Below, piece by piece: positions 2,380 to 40,405 of a stretch of DNA of 47,708 nt. Made by a program: the position numbers and the translations under genes. Every line of letters starts with the position of its first letter. Position 1 is the stretch's first letter. Below the pieces are notes generated by a model. The model saw nothing but the letters and a program-made list of their open reading frames with translations, did no database searches and was not told the origin of the DNA. This stretch comes from Candidatus Gastranaerophilales bacterium (lineage in GTDB: Bacteria > Cyanobacteriota > Vampirovibrionia > Gastranaerophilales > Gastranaerophilaceae), in contig CANPYC010000015.1 in assembly GCA_947587615.1 (NCBI GenBank), forward strand, positions 1 through 47,708. The letters are read 5' to 3'.

Positions 2380-3342
2380 ATGATTGAATTTGTAAAAAGA
2401 CATCCGCTGTCTGCAATATTTATTATTATATTAATCATTATTTTCGCTGGTGTTAATCAAAGAATTGCTCAACTTGAAAAACGTGCGCAAATGGAAATGG
2501 AAAACACACGAAGACAAGTTGAATTATGCAAAAAAAATATGACATTAAAAAAATATACTGAAGCAATCTCTTGTTATTCGGATTTAGTTGAAAAATATGA
2601 AAATCTTGAATTTAGATACGGTTTAGGTATTGCATTTATTAAAAAGAAACGATACGGCGAAGCGCTTGAGGAGTTTAAATTTATAATTGCACATAAAGAC
2701 GAAGTGGAAGATGAAAAACTTTTAGAAGATTCAAAAAAGCAAATTGCGCTGATTAAAAAAAGACTTTCTCTTCAAAAACAAGCAAAAAAACAAGACATAG
2801 GGCACTACTACTCGGATACAAAAGACTTTGCAGTTTGGAAAACGCCAAAAAACATTAAAGTATATATTAATGATTCTTACGGAAAAGCAAAACTGCTAAA
2901 AAAAGCCTTTGATACTTGGGATAAAATGTTATACGGAACACTTGACTTTACTTATGTTGACTCAAGCGAAGATTGCGACATATCAGCAACCGCAATTGAT
3001 ATTGTAGATTTATTGGAGCTTGCAGCTCAGCAAAATCGTTCTGCAAATTCTATCGGCATGACATTAACCCAAACTTATTATTATAGCTTAAACAAAGATA
3101 AAGTATATATGGAAAAAGCAGAGGTAATGGTTTCTTATAACGATAAAGAAGACGTTGAACGTGATGATGTTGAATTTCTCTCAATAGCCCTTCATGAAGT
3201 AGGGCATTCAATCGGGATATTATCTCACAGCAAAAAATACGGAGATATAATGTATCCTGATGAAACAGGTGATATTCATGAATACTGCACATTGTCCAAT
3301 CGTGATATAAACACTGCAAAAAAGCTCTATGGAAATATCTGA
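2380..3342 (+). CDS. Membrane-anchored matrixin-like zinc metalloprotease (copy 2)
   Basis: Paralogue of the preceding gene along its whole length (320 aa): N-terminal membrane segment (about 10-27), helical TPR-like region with an L-E-F-R-Y-G-L-G segment, and a protease domain with HEVGHSIGILSHS at residues 272-284 followed by a DIMYP Met-turn. Both copies end in the sequence LYGNI/IYGNI. I chose the ATG at 2380, not the GTG at 2359, because it aligns exactly with the start of copy 1 (ATGATT-AATTT in both) and the bases upstream of it belong to the decayed channel-gene copy. The sequences have diverged considerably outside the active site, so the duplication is old and both copies appear to be maintained. 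The stop codon abuts the stop of the convergent gene at 3343 with no intergenic base. Confidence 0.78.
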   Translation: MIEFVKRHPLSAIFIIILIIIFAGVNQRIAQLEKRAQMEMENTRRQVELCKKNMTLKKYTEAISCYSDLVEKYENLEFRYGLGIAFIKKKRYGEALEEFKFIIAHKDEVEDEKLLEDSKKQIALIKKRLSLQKQAKKQDIGHYYSDTKDFAVWKTPKNIKVYINDSYGKAKLLKKAFDTWDKMLYGTLDFTYVDSSEDCDISATAIDIVDLLELAAQQNRSANSIGMTLTQTYYYSLNKDKVYMEKAEVMVSYNDKEDVERDDVEFLSIALHEVGHSIGILSHSKKYGDIMYPDETGDIHEYCTLSNRDINTAKKLYGNI

Positions 3343-13755: not shown

Positions 13756-14754
13756 ATGGCAAATACAAATTTAATTAAAGATAAATATAAAATAGACATT
13801 ATAAAATACAGATATTTTTGGCTTACTTTTACGGGAATAATACTCATCCCCTGCATAGTTGCAATTATTTATCTTATGGTGACGCAGCCAAACCATGCCC
13901 CCTTAAAACTTGGTATTGATTTTACGGGCGGTACAATTTTACAATATGACGTTGATAAAAAAGCAACAACGGGTGATATCGCAAATATCAGACAAAGCCT
14001 TGAAAAAATCGGCGTTAAAAACCCTGTTATTCAAACAACCGCAATAAACGGCACAAACGAAGAGAATAAAGAAGCCGTTAATCACTTGCTTTCAATTCGG
14101 ACAACTTTTTTAGGCGACAAAGAAAGCGCTCAAAAAGTTGAAGAAATTACCAACACCGTTTCAAACAGTTTTAATAAAACCGAGCTTGTTGCAGTTAACT
14201 CCGTCGGTCCGACACTTGGAAGCGAATTACTTAAAAACACCATGGCAGCATTAATTCTTGCTTTTATTTTAATGGTTGTATATATCTCATTTCGATTTCG
14301 TTTTGAATACGGTTGGATTGCTCTTTTAACCTTATTCCATGACGCAATAATAGTGCTCGGCGTTTTTGCAATTAAAGGAATATTCCAAGATACAACGGTA
14401 GATAGCCTATTCATTACTGCTATATTAACCGTTATCGGTTATTCAATTAATGATACAATCGTTGTGTTTGACAGAATAAGAGAAAACATGCGCTTTTTGG
14501 CAAAAAAATATTCCTCTGATGAAATTATCAACGCTTCAATTAATCAAACAATAGCCCGCTCGATTAATACATCTTTAACAACTTTATTTACGTTGTTTGC
14601 GCTATATTTCTTTGGCGGCTCAACGATTAAAGATTTTGTTTTAGCAATCATCATAGGGGTTATTGCAGGAACATACTCTTCAATATTTGTTGCAGGCGTT
14701 ATTCTTGCGATTGTTAAAGAAAACATGGAAAAAAAGAACAAGAAAAATGCCTAA
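13756..14754 (+). CDS. secF: Protein translocase subunit SecF
   Basis: 332 aa. N-terminal membrane helix (about 18-40), the GIDFTGGTILQYD motif, a short periplasmic domain, then five membrane helices with the SecF signatures VNSVGPTLGSELL and GYSINDTIVVFDRIRENM. It is the partner of SecD in the accessory translocase. GGGAGAA lies about ten bases before the ATG. The next gene's ATG (14747) overlaps its last codons by eight bases. Confidence 0.96.
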   Translation: MANTNLIKDKYKIDIIKYRYFWLTFTGIILIPCIVAIIYLMVTQPNHAPLKLGIDFTGGTILQYDVDKKATTGDIANIRQSLEKIGVKNPVIQTTAINGTNEENKEAVNHLLSIRTTFLGDKESAQKVEEITNTVSNSFNKTELVAVNSVGPTLGSELLKNTMAALILAFILMVVYISFRFRFEYGWIALLTLFHDAIIVLGVFAIKGIFQDTTVDSLFITAILTVIGYSINDTIVVFDRIRENMRFLAKKYSSDEIINASINQTIARSINTSLTTLFTLFALYFFGGSTIKDFVLAIIIGVIAGTYSSIFVAGVILAIVKENMEKKNKKNA

Positions 14755-15190
14755 AAAAATAGTTAAAAAGCAAGATATTTCTTTAGCACAATTTGTTGCA
14801 CAAAAAAGAGAAGAGCTCGGGCTTTCACAGGAAGATTTGGCGTATCAATCAAGTTTATCAATAGAACAAATCCGATCAATTGAACAAGGGTTGGATTTGT
14901 TCTTGGCAACTACAACAAGACAAAAACTTGCTAAAGGTTTAAAAATTGAAAATAAAGAGCTAAAGCTCTATGAAACAAAAACAAACTTCAACCTCACCTC
15001 TCAATCAACAATGGATAGTATAAGAGAAGAAATATTGCTAAATTCAACTAACCCTAACCATGAAATAAAATGCCCGCTCTGTGGAGAAAAATTAATAACA
15101 AGAATAGCTAAACTCTACGACCTTGAAGATAATTTAATTCTAAGACCAAAGGCAAGATGCTCAAAATGCCCCTTTCAATTATCGGATTAG
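14747..15190 (+). CDS. HTH (XRE-like) plus zinc-ribbon protein
   Basis: 147 aa from the ATG at 14747, which lies inside the end of secF; the longer start at 14663 would read through secF in another frame and is unlikely. Residues 15-70 form an XRE-type helix-turn-helix: FVAQKREELGLSQEDLAYQS with SIEQIRSIEQG. The C-terminus carries a zinc ribbon with CPLC (about 112-115) and CSKC (about 139-142). This looks like a DNA-binding regulator with a metal-stabilised tail. Target unknown. Translational overlap with secF is unusual for a regulator and suggests that the gene is expressed with the translocase. Confidence 0.75.
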   Translation: MPKKIVKKQDISLAQFVAQKREELGLSQEDLAYQSSLSIEQIRSIEQGLDLFLATTTRQKLAKGLKIENKELKLYETKTNFNLTSQSTMDSIREEILLNSTNPNHEIKCPLCGEKLITRIAKLYDLEDNLILRPKARCSKCPFQLSD

Positions 15191-32712: not shown

Positions 32713-32746
32713 TGTGCTTTTAAATAAATTTATGAATTTTAAATAG

Positions 32747-32780
32747 AATTACCGCTTAAATTTAATTAAGCGGTAATTTT
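32747..32780 (+). terminator. Rho-independent terminator of glgA
   Basis: A perfect 13-bp stem (AATTACCGCTTAA with TTAAGCGGTAATT), 6-base loop and trailing T run. It is symmetric enough to act on the opposite strand as well, where it would end the short-ORF transcript. Confidence 0.88.
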
Positions 32781-32845
32781 ACACTCCTTACATTGGCAGT
32801 TTAGATTGTAGTGAAGTTTGCCGGATTTTTATACATTAATTTTTT

Positions 32846-32986
32846 TTATGCGTTGAATGCTGAAATTGTGGTTGCAGGTTTTGTCATATCAGAATCGGTT
32901 ATATAATTTATTGTCCATATTGATAATGTACATAGAATTAATGTAAGTATACCCAGCAAGCAATTTGTTAATTTTTTGTCCGTCAT
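32846..32986 (-). CDS. Small single-span membrane peptide (46 aa)
   Basis: MTDKKLTNCLLGILTLILCT and so on, with a hydrophobic span at residues 9-27 and a short polar tail ending in ISAFNA. AAGGAG lies seven bases before the ATG. It is 32 bp downstream of another short ORF on the same strand, so both may come from one message that ends at the terminator 32747-32780. I do not recognise the sequence. Topology would be a cytoplasmic N-terminus of about eight residues with the C-terminus outside. Confidence 0.6.
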   Translation of the reverse strand: MTDKKLTNCLLGILTLILCTLSIWTINYITDSDMTKPATTISAFNA

Positions 32987-33018
32987 TTTTAACTCCTTAA
33001 CTTTCTTGGGTATTAATA

Positions 33019-33156
33019 CTATGCAGTAAATATACTACCCGATGATGCAGATGAACCGCTTGATGCAATTGAACCTGCGGTTTCAGTTGAGCCGCCTGTG
33101 TAAACTCCGCCATAAGTTGAAGTAGTTGAACAAGTTGAAACTGATGTTGTACCCAT
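33019..33156 (-). CDS. Ser/Thr/Gly-rich small peptide (45 aa)
   Basis: Starts MGTTSVSTCSTTSTYGGVYT and ends SSGSIFTA; more than half of the residues are Ser, Thr or Gly, with a single Cys at position 9 and no charged residue apart from one Glu. AAAGGAG precedes the ATG by eight bases. Neither a signal peptide nor a membrane span is seen. The composition recalls peptide precursors or surface-adhesive peptides but no known precursor motif is visible. It lies 111 bp downstream of the helicase/HNH operon and upstream of the 46-aa membrane peptide. Confidence 0.55.
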   Translation of the reverse strand: MGTTSVSTCSTTSTYGGVYTGGSTETAGSIASSGSSASSGSIFTA

Positions 33157-33267
33157 ATTTTTATCTCCTTTATTGTTTAATTTTTTCGTGCTTACTCTTA
33201 TATAAAAACGATATAAAAAATATAATTTCAGTATTTCATCATTTTTTTACAAAACTTAACAAAAAAA

Positions 33268-35433
33268 CTACAAAGTCCGCACCATCTCAGCTATTTCATC
33301 ATCAGTCAAATCTTGCGTTTTAATTTTATCAAGCACTTTTTGAATTTTTGCTATTATTTCTTTATGGAATTCAATCTTAGAATCATTACTAACCGCTCTA
33401 AAACGCTCTTGAGCGGTTTTTAAAAGTTCGTTTTGTTCGTTAATTTTAACTCTTACATTTGCAATTTGAATATCCGCTTGTTCAACAGAAAAACTATAAC
33501 TTGTTTTAGCAAGTTCGTCTTGTTTTTGTTTTATTAAAAGGTACAATTGCTCGATTTCTTCTTTTAAACTTTGCTCTTTTTCAATATTTAGCTTGTGTTT
33601 TATTATGGGAGAAGTTTTTGATAAATTCTCCAATTTTTCTTCAACGGCTATTTTGGCAAATTCAAAAACCGATAAATCTTCATCCGTTAGATTTTTCTTT
33701 GACGTTTGAAGGGTATACAGTAAAAATGCTTGGCTTATTTTGTTTTTAATTGTTTGCAGTTTTTCATATTCTTTTAAATCAGCAACATCTTGATATTCAC
33801 TCCTGCCTACAAAATTTTTGTTTAGGTAAATTAACTCTTCAAGTTTTTCTTTTTTGGACTTTATTTCTTTATTCAAATTATCAATTTCAAGCAAAAGCGC
33901 TTGTCTTGTATAAGCTTGTGCTCTTTTTGAAATCAGCGTATCAAGCTTTTTATTCAATTTTTCAATATTTTTCTTGCAATCTTGAGGAAAGATTATTTGC
34001 TTTTTAACTTTTATAAACTGCATTTGCAATTTTGAAAGATTTTTTTTGAGTATTTCAAGATGCTGATTTTCATTTACATACTCTTCTTCAAGTTTTGTAA
34101 TTGGAGTTTTGGAAAGATATTTTTTAGCTTTAATTATATTTCTTCTGGTTTTTGCAAAAGCCTCCGACCCCTTAGGAAGTCCTTTTATAAAATCTCTTTG
34201 TTGGTCTAATTTTTTCTGCCATTTATAGTATTTATTTACATGCTGATGAAAATTTGTTTTTCTTTTTTCACAATTGGAAATCTTTTTCTCAAGGTTTTCA
34301 ATTTCATCTTTTAATTCATTGTAGTGAATAATTAGTAAATATTGCTCGTCATCTTTATATTTTTCTTTTATTTCCAATAATTCAGCCAATTCGCTTGTGT
34401 GAGAATTTAATCTTTTTTCAAGCCTCTTAATAGTTTCATCTGCGCTTGTTTTACTTTTTTGCTCGGATAGTATTTCTTTACAGCTCAGCTCTATTTGACC
34501 TTTGGTTTCTTTTTTAATTGTTTTTGCGATATCGGGCAAATAATCACAATATTTTGCCGGAATTTCACCTGTTTTTAATTTTTGTGCAATAACATCAAAA
34601 TATCTTCTTAAATTAAAAATTAAATCAGGTCTTGAAAGCCATTCCCAAAAAGGTCTTTGCTCTCTTTTTGAATTATCTTCTTCACACTCAACAAGATAGT
34701 TTGAAGTGTTATTTAAACCTCCTTGAGATTTTGGTCTTATATGCTCGCAAGTAGCAAGCGACGGGGTTAAAAGCCTTGATAAAAATTCGGCTTGCGTTTT
34801 ATCTTTATATTTAATCAAAAACATTACAGCGCCTTCATTATCATCAGGAACTTTATTTGCAAGCTTAAAGATTTTCTTTGCCTCATGGGAAGAGCGTGCA
34901 CATTTTTCCAAATTTGCTAAAAATTGCTTTTTAACAAATTTTCTATCCCCATGGGAATTGATAATATCAATATTTTCATTGATTAATTCAAGAATTGAAG
35001 CTTTATTTGTTTCTTTTTGAGATATCAGAAGTTTTTTAATTTTCTCAAGTGCACAAATTTGCCTTTCTTCAATTAAAGGTAGGGTTCTTTTTAAATAATC
35101 ATTTGCCAGAGTTAAAACATTTGCGCTATTGTTATTTGAAGCTTCTTGAATAAGTATATTTATAACTTCTCTTTCAGTATCGTGATAATATTTTTGATAT
35201 TTGTTTAGAATTTTTATAAGCTCCGCTCCTTTTTTATTCAAAGCGGAATTTACAAAACTATCAATCTGATTTTTTTGTATCATCGGAATTGAACAGATAG
35301 GACAGGGGATATCATAAAGTCTTTTAAGTTCAAAATTATCCTCGCTGCAATCAAAACCTCTAAAAACGATTTTAGGAGAATTTAAGCCGGTTTTATACAA
35401 CTTATTATTTAATACATTGAGCGATATTTTCAT
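33268..35433 (-). CDS. Split HNH/zinc domain plus long coiled-coil protein (A)
   Basis: 721 aa. An N-terminal VFRGFDCS motif (about 23-30), then CPIC (Cys44, Cys47), then a helical insert of about 180 residues, then an HNH-like core TCEHIRPKSQGGLNNTSNY (about 228-246) with LVECEEDNSKR (Cys250, Asp253, Asn254). In ordinary HNH nucleases the two CxxC pairs and the E-H-x-x-P lie close together; here the last Cys is replaced by Asp253. Residues 320-720 form a very long charged coiled coil with a few breaks. No membrane span. Its ATG overlaps the end of gene B by 4 bp. A nuclease function is an inference; the loss of one zinc ligand may weaken it. Confidence 0.7.
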   Translation of the reverse strand: MKISLNVLNNKLYKTGLNSPKIVFRGFDCSEDNFELKRLYDIPCPICSIPMIQKNQIDSFVNSALNKKGAELIKILNKYQKYYHDTEREVINILIQEASNNNSANVLTLANDYLKRTLPLIEERQICALEKIKKLLISQKETNKASILELINENIDIINSHGDRKFVKKQFLANLEKCARSSHEAKKIFKLANKVPDDNEGAVMFLIKYKDKTQAEFLSRLLTPSLATCEHIRPKSQGGLNNTSNYLVECEEDNSKREQRPFWEWLSRPDLIFNLRRYFDVIAQKLKTGEIPAKYCDYLPDIAKTIKKETKGQIELSCKEILSEQKSKTSADETIKRLEKRLNSHTSELAELLEIKEKYKDDEQYLLIIHYNELKDEIENLEKKISNCEKRKTNFHQHVNKYYKWQKKLDQQRDFIKGLPKGSEAFAKTRRNIIKAKKYLSKTPITKLEEEYVNENQHLEILKKNLSKLQMQFIKVKKQIIFPQDCKKNIEKLNKKLDTLISKRAQAYTRQALLLEIDNLNKEIKSKKEKLEELIYLNKNFVGRSEYQDVADLKEYEKLQTIKNKISQAFLLYTLQTSKKNLTDEDLSVFEFAKIAVEEKLENLSKTSPIIKHKLNIEKEQSLKEEIEQLYLLIKQKQDELAKTSYSFSVEQADIQIANVRVKINEQNELLKTAQERFRAVSNDSKIEFHKEIIAKIQKVLDKIKTQDLTDDEIAEMVRTL

Positions 35434-37613
35434 TTTATATAAAACTGTCCGATTAAATTTTCAAACTCTTCCCTTGATAGCCTTTTGTATACTTTTAACT
35501 CATTTAATAGCATATTATTATAATTAATCAAATCTGCAAGTGCTTCATACTCAGTTCTTAACTGCTGAATATTTTTAATTTTTTCAACTTGAGAAAGCTC
35601 ATCTTGAAGCATTATGACATCATTTTGCATATCAGAGATTGTTGTTCCCGCACTCAGCAAATTAATTTGAGTAAATAAAAGATTTATTTGTTTTTCAACT
35701 TCTTCAATTTCTTTCAGTCTTTGTTTTTCTTTTTCTTCTTCATCCGTTATTTGTTTAACGGTTTTATTATTTTGATATTTTTTAACTTCATTATCTTCTA
35801 AGAGTTCTTTAATTTGTTTTTGTATTGCAACTTGAGCAATTGTTAAAATATCTTTGTCGATTTTTTCACTTGTGCTCTGTTTTTCGCCTAATTCTTCATA
35901 TATTTCCGCACTTCTTTGAGCCATCTCAAGTAAATAGTTATATCTTGCAATATTACCATGGCTTAAAGACGGGTTTTTTTCATCCTCAAGAGCTTGAAGT
36001 TCTTCAATTATACGTGTCTTTTCGCTTTGCAGCATTCTCATTCTTTGAATAATTGAAATTTTATCGGAAATTGAATTTTTTAACTTTGTAATTTTTTCGT
36101 CAAACTCTTTAATCTTACTTATTGTTTGTTGTTTTTCTTTTATTTGTTCTTTAATTTTGTTTTCTGAAGGAATTACCGCCTCAAGTATTCTGATTGTATT
36201 TTTTAAACTTGCATGTTCATGAGATAAATTTTCAATTTCTTCATTATTGCTTGATGATTTTTCTTTTTGCAGCTTGGCAAGTCTTGCTTCAACCGTTTCT
36301 AATCTTTCCGATAAAGTTTGATGTTGAATTATTCTTTTGAATTGCGGATAAGCTTCAAGCGCTTCAATTTGAGCTAATAATTCGCTTTTTTTAGCCGATA
36401 AATCGTTCAATTTTTCTCTCAGGGAAGCAAGAAGCTTTGTTCTTGAAGCAATTTCAGAGTCTTTAAGATACATATTTTCGCTCTTTGGTGCAATTAAAAC
36501 AATTTGCCCGTTACTTAATTTATATATTTTTTTAATAAATTCGGAAATGTAGTCATAATATTTTTCATCTAAAAGACCTTTATCAAGGGCTTGCTGAACT
36601 TCATTAACATATTCTTGCAAATTTTGAGAAAAATCCGGAATATTTTCCATCCACTCGCTAAAAGGAGTTGTGCCTCTTGAAGTATTACATTCGCTGCAAT
36701 CACACATATAATTTGAGCTACTGTTAATAAAAAGAATGTTATAGCCGTTATCTCTGCCTGTTGATTGAGGAATTATATGTTCTGTTGTAGGAATTGTATT
36801 TGAAACAAACCTTTTTGCAATTTCTTGGGAGGAATAATTTTTTGAATATTTTACAAAAAATGAATTTATATCATTGCTTGAATTTGGCAGCTTTTGAACA
36901 ATTTTATTAATTTCCTGCTGTTTATCCTTATCTTCAATTACGTTAACAAGAGCATATATAAACTTTTTTCTTGCAAATTCTTCTTCGCCCTGTCCTAAAA
37001 TTTGTTTTTTATGTTTGTCGATAATATTTTTAATTGCGCAGAGTTCGTCAAAAGAAGTTATGTTTTCTATTACATAATTTTCAAGCTCTTTTATAACCCC
37101 CAATTGAATTTCAATCAGATTGTTTAAATATACCTTTGCCTGAAGCTGAACAATGCCTGCTAAATCAAGCTTGGGGTTTTCAAGCGCCAATTTTTTTATT
37201 ATGTTGATTATTTCCTGCTTTTGCGCTCTGTATATGCCTCTTTTTTTACCGTCTTTTGGTTTTTTTGAATCATCCTCCAAAAAACAGGAATCATCCTCAT
37301 ATTTTTCAAGAGCGGAAGCTAAAGCCTTGCCTTTTTTATTTGAAACATCGTCAATAAAAGCTTTTATTTGAGAAGAATCAAGCATAATCAAACCGCAAAC
37401 CGGGCAGCGCAAATTTTTAATCTCTTTTACCCGAAAAGAAGAAGGGGCGCAGGAAAAACCCTTGAAATTGATTGAATTTTTATAATGCGGAATGTGGTTT
37501 AAATTAAGCACATTTGATACTTGTTTTGAATTTTTTTCAGGCTTTGCATATTTATTTTTATTGAATACACTTATTTTTTTATTGATTAAATTTGCGCTAA
37601 AATTTATCTTCAT
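35430..37613 (-). CDS. Split HNH/zinc domain plus long coiled-coil protein (B)
   Basis: 727 aa, paralogue of the next gene downstream with the same architecture: INFKGFSCAPSSF (48-60), CPVC (Cys70, Cys73), helical insert, HNH core TTEHIIPQSTGRDNGYN (276-292; Glu278, His279), then CDCSECNTSRG with the pair Cys306/Cys309 and Asn310, and FSEWM. In contrast to paralogue A the zinc ligands and the C-x-x-C-N-x-x-R pattern are intact, so this copy is the better candidate for an active HNH nuclease. Residues 380-720 are a long coiled coil. It overlaps the helicase gene by 4 bp (ATGA) upstream and gene A by 4 bp downstream. Confidence 0.72.
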   Translation of the reverse strand: MKINFSANLINKKISVFNKNKYAKPEKNSKQVSNVLNLNHIPHYKNSINFKGFSCAPSSFRVKEIKNLRCPVCGLIMLDSSQIKAFIDDVSNKKGKALASALEKYEDDSCFLEDDSKKPKDGKKRGIYRAQKQEIINIIKKLALENPKLDLAGIVQLQAKVYLNNLIEIQLGVIKELENYVIENITSFDELCAIKNIIDKHKKQILGQGEEEFARKKFIYALVNVIEDKDKQQEINKIVQKLPNSSNDINSFFVKYSKNYSSQEIAKRFVSNTIPTTEHIIPQSTGRDNGYNILFINSSSNYMCDCSECNTSRGTTPFSEWMENIPDFSQNLQEYVNEVQQALDKGLLDEKYYDYISEFIKKIYKLSNGQIVLIAPKSENMYLKDSEIASRTKLLASLREKLNDLSAKKSELLAQIEALEAYPQFKRIIQHQTLSERLETVEARLAKLQKEKSSSNNEEIENLSHEHASLKNTIRILEAVIPSENKIKEQIKEKQQTISKIKEFDEKITKLKNSISDKISIIQRMRMLQSEKTRIIEELQALEDEKNPSLSHGNIARYNYLLEMAQRSAEIYEELGEKQSTSEKIDKDILTIAQVAIQKQIKELLEDNEVKKYQNNKTVKQITDEEEKEKQRLKEIEEVEKQINLLFTQINLLSAGTTISDMQNDVIMLQDELSQVEKIKNIQQLRTEYEALADLINYNNMLLNELKVYKRLSREEFENLIGQFYIK

Positions 37614-40405
37614 ACTTCCACCAAATCATTAACGGGTTTTTGAACCAAAAGCAGTAAAGCAAGCTCGGAATTTTCTTTTAAATTTTCATAGTAGCTTGTA
37701 TTAGGGAACTTTTCAGGATTCATCAATGCGAAGTCGCAAATTCTTGCAATTGTTTTAAGGGTTGAAACGCTTTGCGAGATTATCTTATAAACACTTCCTT
37801 GCTTAATTTTTCTTAAATATTCGCTTCTTGCTTCAATCAAATAATCATCAGTATCTTCATCCGTCATAGGTTCTTTTGTTAATCTGATAAAATTATCAAC
37901 GGAATTTTGATTGTTATCGTTTAAAATTGCCCACGCATAGCTAATATAAGAAGAAAAAGCATTTCCATACATTATATCTTCTTTTTGAGCTTTACTTTCT
38001 TTTGTTGCTTTAATTATTCGCATTTCTTTTTTGGAGATATTTTGAATTATTTTATTAAAATTTACAATTTTTTCATCATCCGATGAACAATTTAAAACTT
38101 TCTCCATTTGAGGATTTAAAATTTCTCCTATAAATTCGCTTTCTTTTTGTTCGTTTGAACCTGCAATATAGCCTGCAATTTGAATTAGAGAAAAAACATC
38201 AAGGTCTTTAAATTTTTCATTATATATTAAATCCGATAATAACAGAGGGTTTACTCCTCTCGCAAGTCTTAAAAGCTCTCCCTTGGGGGTTAAATTAACT
38301 TTTTTGTTATGATTAATTTCAACAAAACCAAGTTTTTTAAGAGTATTTTTATAATTTTCAAATTTATTTAAAAGTCTTTGAGCTTCTTTTTCTTTATTTT
38401 TGGTTAAAAAAACCTTAAAACTGTTATCAATATGAGTTTTTAGAGCTTCAAAATCACTATTATTTGTGTAATAATCACTAAGCATACACCAATCGGGCTT
38501 ATAGTGGCTTCTTAGCGGATTGGATGGGCTTTCCAAAAGTTCATAGGCAAGCGCCAATTCATCAATTTTTATCTCGTCGTCGTTTGCCGCAATCGGCTTT
38601 CTAAAACTCGAAGGGCTTAATTCATCTCTAAAACCGTCTTTTGGGGTTTTTAAGTTGTATAATACAACATTTCCGATTTTATCAATTCCCCTTCTGCCTG
38701 CCCTGCCTGCCATCTGGTGAAATTCACTTGCATTTAGAGGCTTTTGCTCAATGGAATTAAGCTCGGGATTATATTTTCTATATGCCATATCGGACATAAC
38801 AACCGTTCTTGCGGGCATATTAATACCTAAAGACAAAGTAGAGGTTGCAACAACGACTTTTAAAAGTTTTTTTTGGAATAATTCTTCAATCAGTTTTCTA
38901 TATTGAGGCAAAGTTCCTGCATGATGATAGCTGAAACCCTTTAAAATTGTTTGTTCATCAAAATCCGAGCCTAAGTATATTTTATCTTTTTTATATTTTT
39001 CAAATATTTTTTTAATTTCTTCCTTTTCTTCATCTGTCGTTAAATCAATCGAGGATTCAGCAAAAGAATTTACGCTAAACTCGCATTCTCCCTGCGACAG
39101 CTTGAAAAATATTGCAGGAAGCATATCATTATCTTTAAGAGAGTTAATCAGTTGATTGTTGAATTTTTTAATTCTTCTCGGGTCAAAATTTTCCAAATGA
39201 ATTTTATCAATGCTTTTTTCTTTATCATCCGCTAAAAGGCAGGAAATTTCCTTAAGAGTTATTTTATCAATATTGGGATAAATTTTTTCAAGGATTTTTT
39301 GAAAATCTTTTAAATCAAGGCTTTCTTCTCTTTCAAAATTAGCCAAAAAGAGGTTCATTGTTTTTTGAAGCTCATCTAAATCAGGCTTATAGTATTCATT
39401 TTTGTTGTTTGTTTCCCTAAAAAGATATTCAAAAGCACGCCTTTGAGAAGGGTTTAATTTTTCAACATCCGAAGGAATTTTAGATAAATTAACATTTTGA
39501 TTTATTATCGGTATAAATTCGCCGTCTTTTGCCCCTTCTTTGTTCCATTTATAAATTGAATATACAAGAGGTACAAACCTGTCTTTTGCTTCTACTTCAA
39601 TATTTGATACAGCTCTTTTAGGGCTTAAGGATTGAATCCAGCTTGCAAAATCAGAACTGTTACCGATAGTTGCCGATAAAAACAAAAGCTGAATTTTATC
39701 CTGAGGAGTGTTTATGATTGAATTTTCCCAAACAACCCCTCTTTGCTCGTCATTTATATAATGAGCTTCATCAAAAATTACACTTCCGATTTTGGCTGCA
39801 TTTTGAAGCCCGCAAGCTGCCATATTGTCATATATTTCAGTCGTCATTATAACAATCGGGGCATTGGGATTATGTTTAATATCCCCCGTTAAAAGCCCTA
39901 TGTTTTCATTTCCGTAAATTTTGCAAAATTCATTGTATTTATCGTTTGCAAGCGCTATTTGAGGAGATGTGTATATTGTTTTTTTATTGTTTTCAAGATT
40001 TTTATTGATTGCGTAATGAGCAAGTGCGGTTTTACCCGTTCCTGTCGGGGCGCTGAAAATTACGCTGTCACCTTCGTAGATTTTTTTAGCGGCTCTTATT
40101 TGCGCTTCGTCAGGTTGAAACCTGTAAATCGTACCGTCATCTAAAGTTATTTGCGGAAGTTTGAAAAAGTTTTTATCAATTGTTTTTTCAAAATCGTTTT
40201 TCTTGCGCAAATCAATATAAGCGCAAAAATTAATGTTATTATTATAAATTGAAGCCGTTAACGCACTCTTTTCACCGATTTTTGCTTTTTTTAAATCTGC
40301 CTTGCAAGTAAGCGTATTTGTATTTATTTTATTCTTGTTTTTGCCCTTGCCTTTGTTTTTATATACAGCGCTTGAATAACCAAAACAATTAATCGGTGAA
40401 AGCAT
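37610..40405 (-). CDS. Ski2/HelY-like DExH-box helicase
   Basis: 931 aa. Lineage-type N-terminus of 80 residues with INFCAYID, then an SF2 core: Q-like motif FQPDEAQIRAA, Walker A SAPTGTGKTA (118-127), Walker B DEAH (212-215), SAT (244-246), SYHHAGTLPQYR, VVVATSTLSLGINMPARTVV and the motif VI HQMAGRAGRRGID. The GINMPA and GRAGRRG motifs and the helical C-terminal domain place it with Ski2/Mtr4/HelY RNA helicases. A 200-residue insert lies between the two RecA domains. Its stop overlaps the start of coiled-coil protein B by 4 bp, so helicase, B and A form one coupled operon. Substrate, RNA or DNA, unknown. Confidence 0.85.
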   Translation of the reverse strand: MLSPINCFGYSSAVYKNKGKGKNKNKINTNTLTCKADLKKAKIGEKSALTASIYNNNINFCAYIDLRKKNDFEKTIDKNFFKLPQITLDDGTIYRFQPDEAQIRAAKKIYEGDSVIFSAPTGTGKTALAHYAINKNLENNKKTIYTSPQIALANDKYNEFCKIYGNENIGLLTGDIKHNPNAPIVIMTTEIYDNMAACGLQNAAKIGSVIFDEAHYINDEQRGVVWENSIINTPQDKIQLLFLSATIGNSSDFASWIQSLSPKRAVSNIEVEAKDRFVPLVYSIYKWNKEGAKDGEFIPIINQNVNLSKIPSDVEKLNPSQRRAFEYLFRETNNKNEYYKPDLDELQKTMNLFLANFEREESLDLKDFQKILEKIYPNIDKITLKEISCLLADDKEKSIDKIHLENFDPRRIKKFNNQLINSLKDNDMLPAIFFKLSQGECEFSVNSFAESSIDLTTDEEKEEIKKIFEKYKKDKIYLGSDFDEQTILKGFSYHHAGTLPQYRKLIEELFQKKLLKVVVATSTLSLGINMPARTVVMSDMAYRKYNPELNSIEQKPLNASEFHQMAGRAGRRGIDKIGNVVLYNLKTPKDGFRDELSPSSFRKPIAANDDEIKIDELALAYELLESPSNPLRSHYKPDWCMLSDYYTNNSDFEALKTHIDNSFKVFLTKNKEKEAQRLLNKFENYKNTLKKLGFVEINHNKKVNLTPKGELLRLARGVNPLLLSDLIYNEKFKDLDVFSLIQIAGYIAGSNEQKESEFIGEILNPQMEKVLNCSSDDEKIVNFNKIIQNISKKEMRIIKATKESKAQKEDIMYGNAFSSYISYAWAILNDNNQNSVDNFIRLTKEPMTDEDTDDYLIEARSEYLRKIKQGSVYKIISQSVSTLKTIARICDFALMNPEKFPNTSYYENLKENSELALLLLVQKPVNDLVEV

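What the first reader, a model, noticed from the sequence alone, without database searches (positions are those of the whole stretch)
32846..33156. Two untracked short ORFs with strong ribosome binding sites behind the helicase/HNH operon
Seen: a 45-aa peptide, mostly Ser, Thr and Gly, and a 46-aa single-span membrane peptide, each preceded by AAGGAG at good spacing, 32 bp apart, on the strand of the operon and ended by a strong terminator. Such short genes are generally missed. Inference: peptide and membrane partner; the Ser/Thr/Gly-rich one may be a precursor, adhesive or effector-like peptide.
Basis: partly seen in the sequence, partly recalled or inferred. Interest (0 to 1): 0.58.

Follow-up and report, generated by a model that had tools for sequence, protein, structure and literature searches.

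The report
Conserved small-peptide pair in a regulon
Two tiny overlooked genes in a gut bacterium of the order Gastranaerophilales are real and conserved, and share a distinctive genetic switch with other scattered genes of unknown function that may feed a protein-export machine.

Summary
In detail: peptide A (45 aa; 31 Ser/Thr/Gly) and B (46 aa, one membrane span) are real genes. B recurs in 46 of 383 family genomes (E<1e-6) under purifying selection (median dN/dS 0.19). In 45 of these 46 an A-type ORF lies just upstream; the other is cut by a contig end. A's signature is a repeated ETAG[ST][ILMV]A motif (221 of 383 family genomes, 5 reversed-control hits). B's is a C-terminal [IV]SAF[ND][AG] tail, found with an ETAG peptide even in another family of the order.

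A/B is its own unit, not the tail of the helicase/HNH operon. Upstream lies a fixed-geometry box (window 33184-33265, minus): TGTAAC..TGAAAT..TTTATATA. It occurs in 372 of 383 genomes, usually several per genome, before dispersed genes without signal peptides or Pfam families. The host genome also holds a second, divergent type III export set besides the flagellar one.

Best reading: A and probably B belong to an undescribed regulon of candidate type III-type export substrates. Conservation, box and regulon are shown; export is inferred and untested. RiPP (thiazole) and phage origins were not supported.

The parts
33184..33265 (-). Promoter-like box, consensus TtAAg..TGTAACnAAA-N11-TGAAnT-N18-TTTATATAnnnGTAAG; the window copy has one mismatch (TGTAAA)
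33165..33170 (-). Shine-Dalgarno AAGGAG of A
   Evidence: sequence
33019..33156 (-). Gene A: 45-aa Ser/Thr/Gly-rich peptide with one ETAGSIA motif (minus-strand DNA 33084-33065)
32993..32998 (-). Shine-Dalgarno AAGGAG of B
   Evidence: sequence
32846..32986 (-). Gene B: 46-aa single-span membrane peptide with C-terminal tail TISAFNA
32744..32781 (.). Hairpin between B and the convergent glgA; possible two-way terminator with poor T-runs
   Evidence: no terminator called; z -4.4 and -6.5

Best explanation
A and B are two genuine small-protein genes, co-transcribed from a dedicated box. Shown: conservation as coding sequence, pairing, the ETAG motif, the B tail, the box, and sharing of the box with dispersed genes for signal-less proteins. 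Inferred: the box is the promoter of a regulon whose products are substrates of the second, divergent type III-type export apparatus that the host genome holds besides its flagellar set. A would be a small disordered substrate whose repeated ETAG motif is a docking or recognition module. B would sit N-in/C-out in the membrane with its conserved tail outside, acting as A's membrane partner or exit/anchor factor in the lineages that have it.
For: Coding. Pairing in 45 of 46 strong B loci; the 46th (G022) is cut at a contig end with ETAG codons still visible. Pairing in a second family, f2, with tail HIISAFDG. Motif: 221 of 383 family genomes against 5 reversed-pattern hits; at background outside the order. 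Box: fixed 44-nt spacing; every non-training scan hit over 18 bits lay upstream of an A-type or ETAG-bearing ORF except L111:2122, a 98-aa protein with relatives behind other boxes; 372 of 383 genomes and 41 of 41 genera, own genome 6 hits against 1 control. Own-genome box genes: A/B, a 141-aa coiled coil (2 copies), a 58-aa protein (2 copies). 15 hand-picked non-ETAG box proteins: none has a hydrophobic N-terminus (genome 19.5%); N-terminal Ser/Thr/Asn/Gln 0.347 against 0.230, 0 of 20,000 random sets. Second export set: FliP-, FliQ-, FliR-, FlhB- and FlhA-like paralogues, FliE and FliF-like; its FlhA-like and FliF-like proteins miss the flagellar cut-offs while the L292 FlhA passes. Three variant boxes lie within about 13 kb upstream of that FlhA-like gene on the same contig.
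Against: No export was shown for any member. The second apparatus was examined in this genome only. Literature reads partial flagellar gene sets in this order as non-functional. A stands without B in many genera (g41, g7, g14, g18, g29 and others), so B is not needed everywhere. A is weakly constrained in this genus (median dN/dS 0.62). Composition bias is a weak export signal, and the 15 proteins come from several genera while the background is one genome. The variant boxes near the export locus precede RNA-like units without ORFs, not export genes. No signal-sequence or effector predictor was run. The second FlhB passes the flagellar flhB cut-off (353.6 against 349.25), so 'non-flagellar' is not proven.
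Confidence: 0.38

Rival explanations
1. A and B work inside the cell or at the inner membrane: A is a disordered multivalent scaffold whose ETAG motifs bind one conserved protein, and B anchors the complex. No export is involved.
For: Motif copy number varies from 1 to about 9 with variable spacers, as in multivalent linear motifs; A has no signal peptide; in g24 the motif is fused to a membrane protein.
Against: Does not explain why the shared box marks so many signal-less orphans; no partner protein was found.
Confidence: 0.3
2. Peptide signalling: B is a membrane-tethered precursor whose conserved C-terminal ISAF[ND][AG] is released as a signal, or A is a multi-copy precursor of ETAG heptapeptides.
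For: In B the tail is conserved while the linker varies; variable copy number of an invariant core in A is typical of multi-copy precursors.
Against: No receptor or processing protease found; the tail is nearly uniform across genera, unlike most strain-specific pheromones (recalled); A lacks an export signal.
Confidence: 0.13
3. A is the precursor of a modified peptide natural product (RiPP), its Ser/Thr/Cys/Gly-rich C-terminus being the core.
For: Cys/Ser/Gly-rich C-termini in several genera.
Against: No modification enzyme noticed beside A in the loci read; YcaO in only 2 of 24 tested genomes and absent in the host. Other enzyme classes were not tested.
Confidence: 0.06
4. Toxin-antitoxin pair with B as the membrane toxin.
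For: Small hydrophobic B in a two-gene unit.
Against: A often stands alone; mostly one locus per genome; no relatives confirmed in viral contigs; shared regulon box.
Confidence: 0.04
5. Chance ORFs without function.
For: Short ORFs are common in AT-rich DNA.
Against: Family-wide conservation, purifying selection, conserved ribosome binding sites and box.
Confidence: 0.01

Closest known systems
Effector-type regulons with a dispersed promoter box (hrp box, PIP box, tts box; recalled, not from a call)
   Same: One conserved promoter element before scattered genes for signal-peptide-less proteins, in a genome with a type III-type export apparatus
   Different: Different box and geometry (TGTAAC/TGAAAT/TTTATATA); regulator unknown; export not shown; bacterium is a gut-associated Gastranaerophilales
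Flagellar / type III export apparatus (NCBIfam FlhA, SctV, FlhB, FliP, SctR, FliE, FliF models)
   Same: The host genome has a second set of the core export proteins
   Different: The second set's FlhA-like and FliF-like proteins score below the flagellar and the injectisome cut-offs; it is split over three contigs
PatS/PatX- or SHP-type small signalling peptides (recalled)
   Same: B: short N-terminus, membrane span, variable linker, conserved C-terminal tail
   Different: No receptor or protease known; tail uniform across genera; paired with A
DUF378 (PF04070) small membrane proteins
   Same: In three g1 genomes an ETAG peptide paralogue precedes a DUF378-type gene
   Different: B is not DUF378; that operon lacks the box

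Membership tests
ETAG-peptide / SAF-tail pair (defined here) | ETAG[ST][ILMV]A motif in the upstream ORF | tested here: met
   Window A holds ETAGSIA; single match in its genome; 221 of 383 family genomes
ETAG-peptide / SAF-tail pair (defined here) | B: one membrane span with C-terminal [IV]SAF[ND][AG] | tested here: met
   Window B ends TISAFNA; f2 family B ends HIISAFDG
ETAG-peptide / SAF-tail pair (defined here) | Upstream box with 44-nt spacing | tested here: met
   Window copy with one mismatch
Type III secretion substrates | No Sec/Tat signal sequence | tested here: met
   15 of 15 hand-picked non-ETAG box proteins without a hydrophobic N-terminus (hydropathy only, no signal predictor); A has none by sequence. 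B is a membrane protein and was not in this set
Type III secretion substrates | Secreted in an apparatus-dependent way | not testable with these tools
   Needs secretome proteomics or an export assay
Type III secretion substrates | Genome encodes a type III export apparatus other than the flagellum | tested here: inconclusive
   Second export set found but intermediate between flagellar and injectisome models; no secretin or needle gene was sought
YcaO-dependent RiPP (LAP/TOMM) | YcaO cyclodehydratase in the genome | tested here: not met
   Absent in the host; 2 of 24 genomes
Phage-encoded small protein | Relatives in phage families or viral contigs | tested here: not met
   No PHROGs match; none confirmed among 12 pattern-matching stretches of viral contigs
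Known Pfam or NCBIfam family | Match at the curated cut-off | tested here: not met
   only sub-threshold matches

The most novel reading that the evidence does not exclude
The order Gastranaerophilales carries a previously unrecognised type III-type export system, so far read as a degenerate flagellum, with its own regulon: a fixed-spacing promoter box controls dispersed exported proteins. The ETAG peptides, with or without the SAF-tail membrane peptide, are its most widespread class of member.
Probability: 0.3. Interest if true: 0.85.

Novelty: new variant of a known kind. Interest (0 to 1): 0.62.

Why it matters
Gastranaerophilales are widespread gut bacteria, and their interaction with hosts is little known. 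A regulon present in 372 of 383 genomes examined, made of unannotated small or orphan proteins, gives a concrete list of genes to test for export and host contact, and a reason to revisit the 'partial flagellum' described for these genomes. It also shows that two 45-46 aa ORFs of the kind annotation tends to skip can be markers of a whole regulon.

Tried and rejected
RiPP (thiazole/oxazole): YcaO searched in 24 genomes, found in 2, not in the host. Phage origin: viral contigs and PHROGs negative. Operon partnership with helicase/HNH: linkage only within this genus. SsrA-like degron: the host tmRNA tag is ANNVVKADFAPRAIAA, with only a loose resemblance to the C-termini of A; not pursued. Lipoprotein reading of B: the LISC stretch is not kept in the window copy (LILC) or in L019, L020 and L029. 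Known-family searches of regulon proteins gave only weak sub-threshold matches. A quick regex for a second type III ATPase matched only an F1-like ATPase; the pattern was too strict to mean anything, since it also missed any flagellar ATPase. An early narrower box pattern gave 5 hits in 8 genomes and made the box look nearly unique; the proper fixed-spacing pattern corrected this. Literature: no paper in the held library contains ETAGSIA, ETAGTLA, ETAGSVA or ETAGTIA; searches combining Gastranaerophilales, Vampirovibrionia or Melainabacteria with type III secretion, secretion system, small proteins or promoter motif listed no description of this regulon. I saw search listings, and 'find' passages of PMC4040986, PMC3787301 and PMC5877343; no paper was read in full.

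Rows dropped before counts: the B dN/dS median leaves out 22 of 153 pairs with unusable dS, and L019 was not picked up by that script (18 of 19 genus loci); the 86 A-type ORFs include one non-member (L149, a cyclase-like protein by eye), three DUF378-associated paralogues (L145-L147) and four g24 membrane proteins (L108, L111, L112, L130), all among the 12 without the box, the other four being two truncated upstreams (L093, L141), L132 and L143 (the last does reach the matrix threshold); the 15 regulon proteins were hand-picked plus L178 (which itself holds an ETAGSMA stretch) and leave out ETAG-type short ones, two 2-mismatch candidates (L189, L211) and likely chance hits (L196, L218, L225).

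Full report
OBSERVATION. The two ORFs are as described: A (33156-33019, minus, 45 aa) and B (32986-32846, minus, 46 aa), with AAGGAG 8 and 6 nt before the ATG and a 32-nt gap. A is 31 of 45 Ser/Thr/Gly. B has one hydrophobic span, a short N-terminus with two Lys and a tail TISAFNA; N-in/C-out is my inference from charge. The hairpin downstream is real, but no terminator was called.

CONSERVATION. A single-sequence search with B (146 genomes) and a profile search (383 family genomes) find B at E<1e-6 in 46 of 383: 21 of 28 genomes of this genus (own included), 8 of g26, 14 of g36, 2 of g37 and 1 of g3. Weaker rows in that table mostly contain stops and I do not count them, except that G043 (1.9e-4) shows a clear pair when its locus is read. 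Among 18 genus loci, codon-position divergence is 0.25/0.18/0.47 and median dN/dS 0.19 (131 usable of 153 pairs). A is looser: median dN/dS 0.62 (this genus, 16 ORFs), 0.34 (g26, 8), 0.33 (g36, 13), 0.52 (g41, 24).

PAIRING AND MOTIFS. In 45 of the 46 strong B loci a Ser/Thr-rich or ETAG-type ORF lies upstream; the 46th (G022) is cut by a contig end. In this genus the gap is 16-36 nt. A few A copies have degenerate motifs (L013, L019; g37 has DTTG[VI]AA). The codon pattern for ETAG[ST][ILMV]A occurs in 221 of 383 family genomes (28 of 41 genera) against 5 hits of the reversed control by my reading of the table, usually 1-7 copies per genome, clustered in one ORF in the loci read. Outside the order it is at background. 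Many genera (for example g41, g7, g14, g18, g29) have A alone. In family f2, two genomes pair an ETAG peptide with a 49-aa membrane peptide unlike B except for its tail HIISAFDG, and a genus genome missed by the profile (G027) has one ending SITAYNG. So the tail, not the span, defines B. Genus g3 has a 756-aa relative with repeated EEAGATIA.

THE BOX. Of 86 A-type ORFs, 74 have upstream a TGTAA element and a TTTATA element; with 38-50 nt allowed, the spacing is 44 nt in 73 and 45 in one. The 12 without are listed under Tried and rejected. The aligned consensus adds TGAA.T between them and a downstream TGtaa. The window copy spans 33184-33265, wholly inside the 111-nt gap between the HNH gene and A. 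A matrix scan of all loci then held (2.09 Mb counting both strands) found further boxes only upstream of A-type or ETAG-bearing ORFs and one other gene, L111:2122.

THE REGULON. The fixed-spacing pattern with up to 2 mismatches occurs in 372 of 383 genomes and all 41 genera, commonly several times per genome, while the reversed control is rare; g41 has few. Reading listed sites from g41 and g24 and their genes shows dispersed genes for proteins of 52-628 aa, several with coiled coils, without Pfam families (8 tested). In the host, 1.54 Mb contained 6 hits and 1 control hit: A/B, two identical copies of a 141-aa coiled coil, two identical copies of a 58-aa protein, and one spurious. For 15 hand-picked non-ETAG proteins none has a hydrophobic N-terminus and their first 25 residues are rich in Ser/Thr/Asn/Gln (0.347 against 0.230; 0 of 20,000 random draws). 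That set mixes genera and is my selection.

A POSSIBLE ROUTE. The host has a flagellar export operon (L292; FlhA 852 bits, above its cut-off of 772) and a second set: FliE, FliF-like, FliH-like (by eye) and FlhA-like in L299; FliN/SctQ-like, FliP/SctR, FliQ and FliR in L270; FlhB/SctU-like in L319. The second FlhA scores 684 against 772 (flagellar) and 593 against 692 (injectisome). Three variant boxes driving short RNA-like units lie upstream of the L299 locus (no Rfam match for the two in L299). Published passages describe partial flagellar gene sets in this order as non-functional (PMC4040986) and a gut genome lacking filament, cap, and L and P rings (PMC3787301). I suggest that such sets could be a type III-type export system; this is inference.

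MECHANISM AND LIMITS. Shown: real genes, pairing, motif, tail, box, shared box. Inferred: promoter function, export, role of ETAG as a docking module, role of B as membrane partner. The main alternative is an intracellular multivalent scaffold with a membrane anchor. Nothing here identifies the partner, the regulator or a phenotype.

NEIGHBOURHOOD. 16 of 19 genus loci have an HNH-type gene upstream, but loci of other genera showed no HNH or helicase homologue, so this is local synteny.

Noticed in passing
L299:5732-11654, L270:7502-11154, L319:2960-4165 (host contigs C14, C3, C52); flagellar set L292:2044-7133: A second, divergent type III-type export gene set besides the flagellar one, split over three contigs.
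   Followed up: partly
L298:18760 (+), L299:389 (+), L299 minus strand at scan offset 10854 (about plus 3140-3200): Three short units under a variant box, each starting GTAAGACATAAATA with CCTCCCCC and followed by a terminator-like hairpin; they look like small RNAs with an anti-Shine-Dalgarno stretch. No Rfam match (L299 only).
   Followed up: partly
window 33268-40405 (-): Ski2-like helicase and two HNH/coiled-coil proteins; the helicase matches PADLOC HamB models at 2.3e-32, but the HNH proteins match no defence model.
   Followed up: partly
L145, L146, L147 (g1 genomes); host DUF378 gene L319:4247-4471 (-): An ETAG peptide paralogue precedes a DUF378-type gene in three g1 genomes, after a GtrA-like gene (by eye); in the host the DUF378-type gene has no ETAG ORF and lies beside the FlhB/SctU-like gene.
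   Followed up: partly
L244:2071-2496 and 14351-14776; L289 and L310: Two box-driven genes (141 aa and 58 aa) exist as identical protein copies about 12 kb apart and on different contigs, suggesting recent duplication.
   Followed up: no
window 33268-37613 (-); L108, L111, L112, L130: Recurrent N-terminal [IV].F[KRSC]G motif (INFKG, IVFRG, ISFSG) in otherwise unrelated proteins, in g24 directly followed by ETAG.
   Followed up: no
L193, L197 (g41): Box-driven peptides made of DLDRDLDF-type repeats, ending DLVA or YALA.
   Followed up: no
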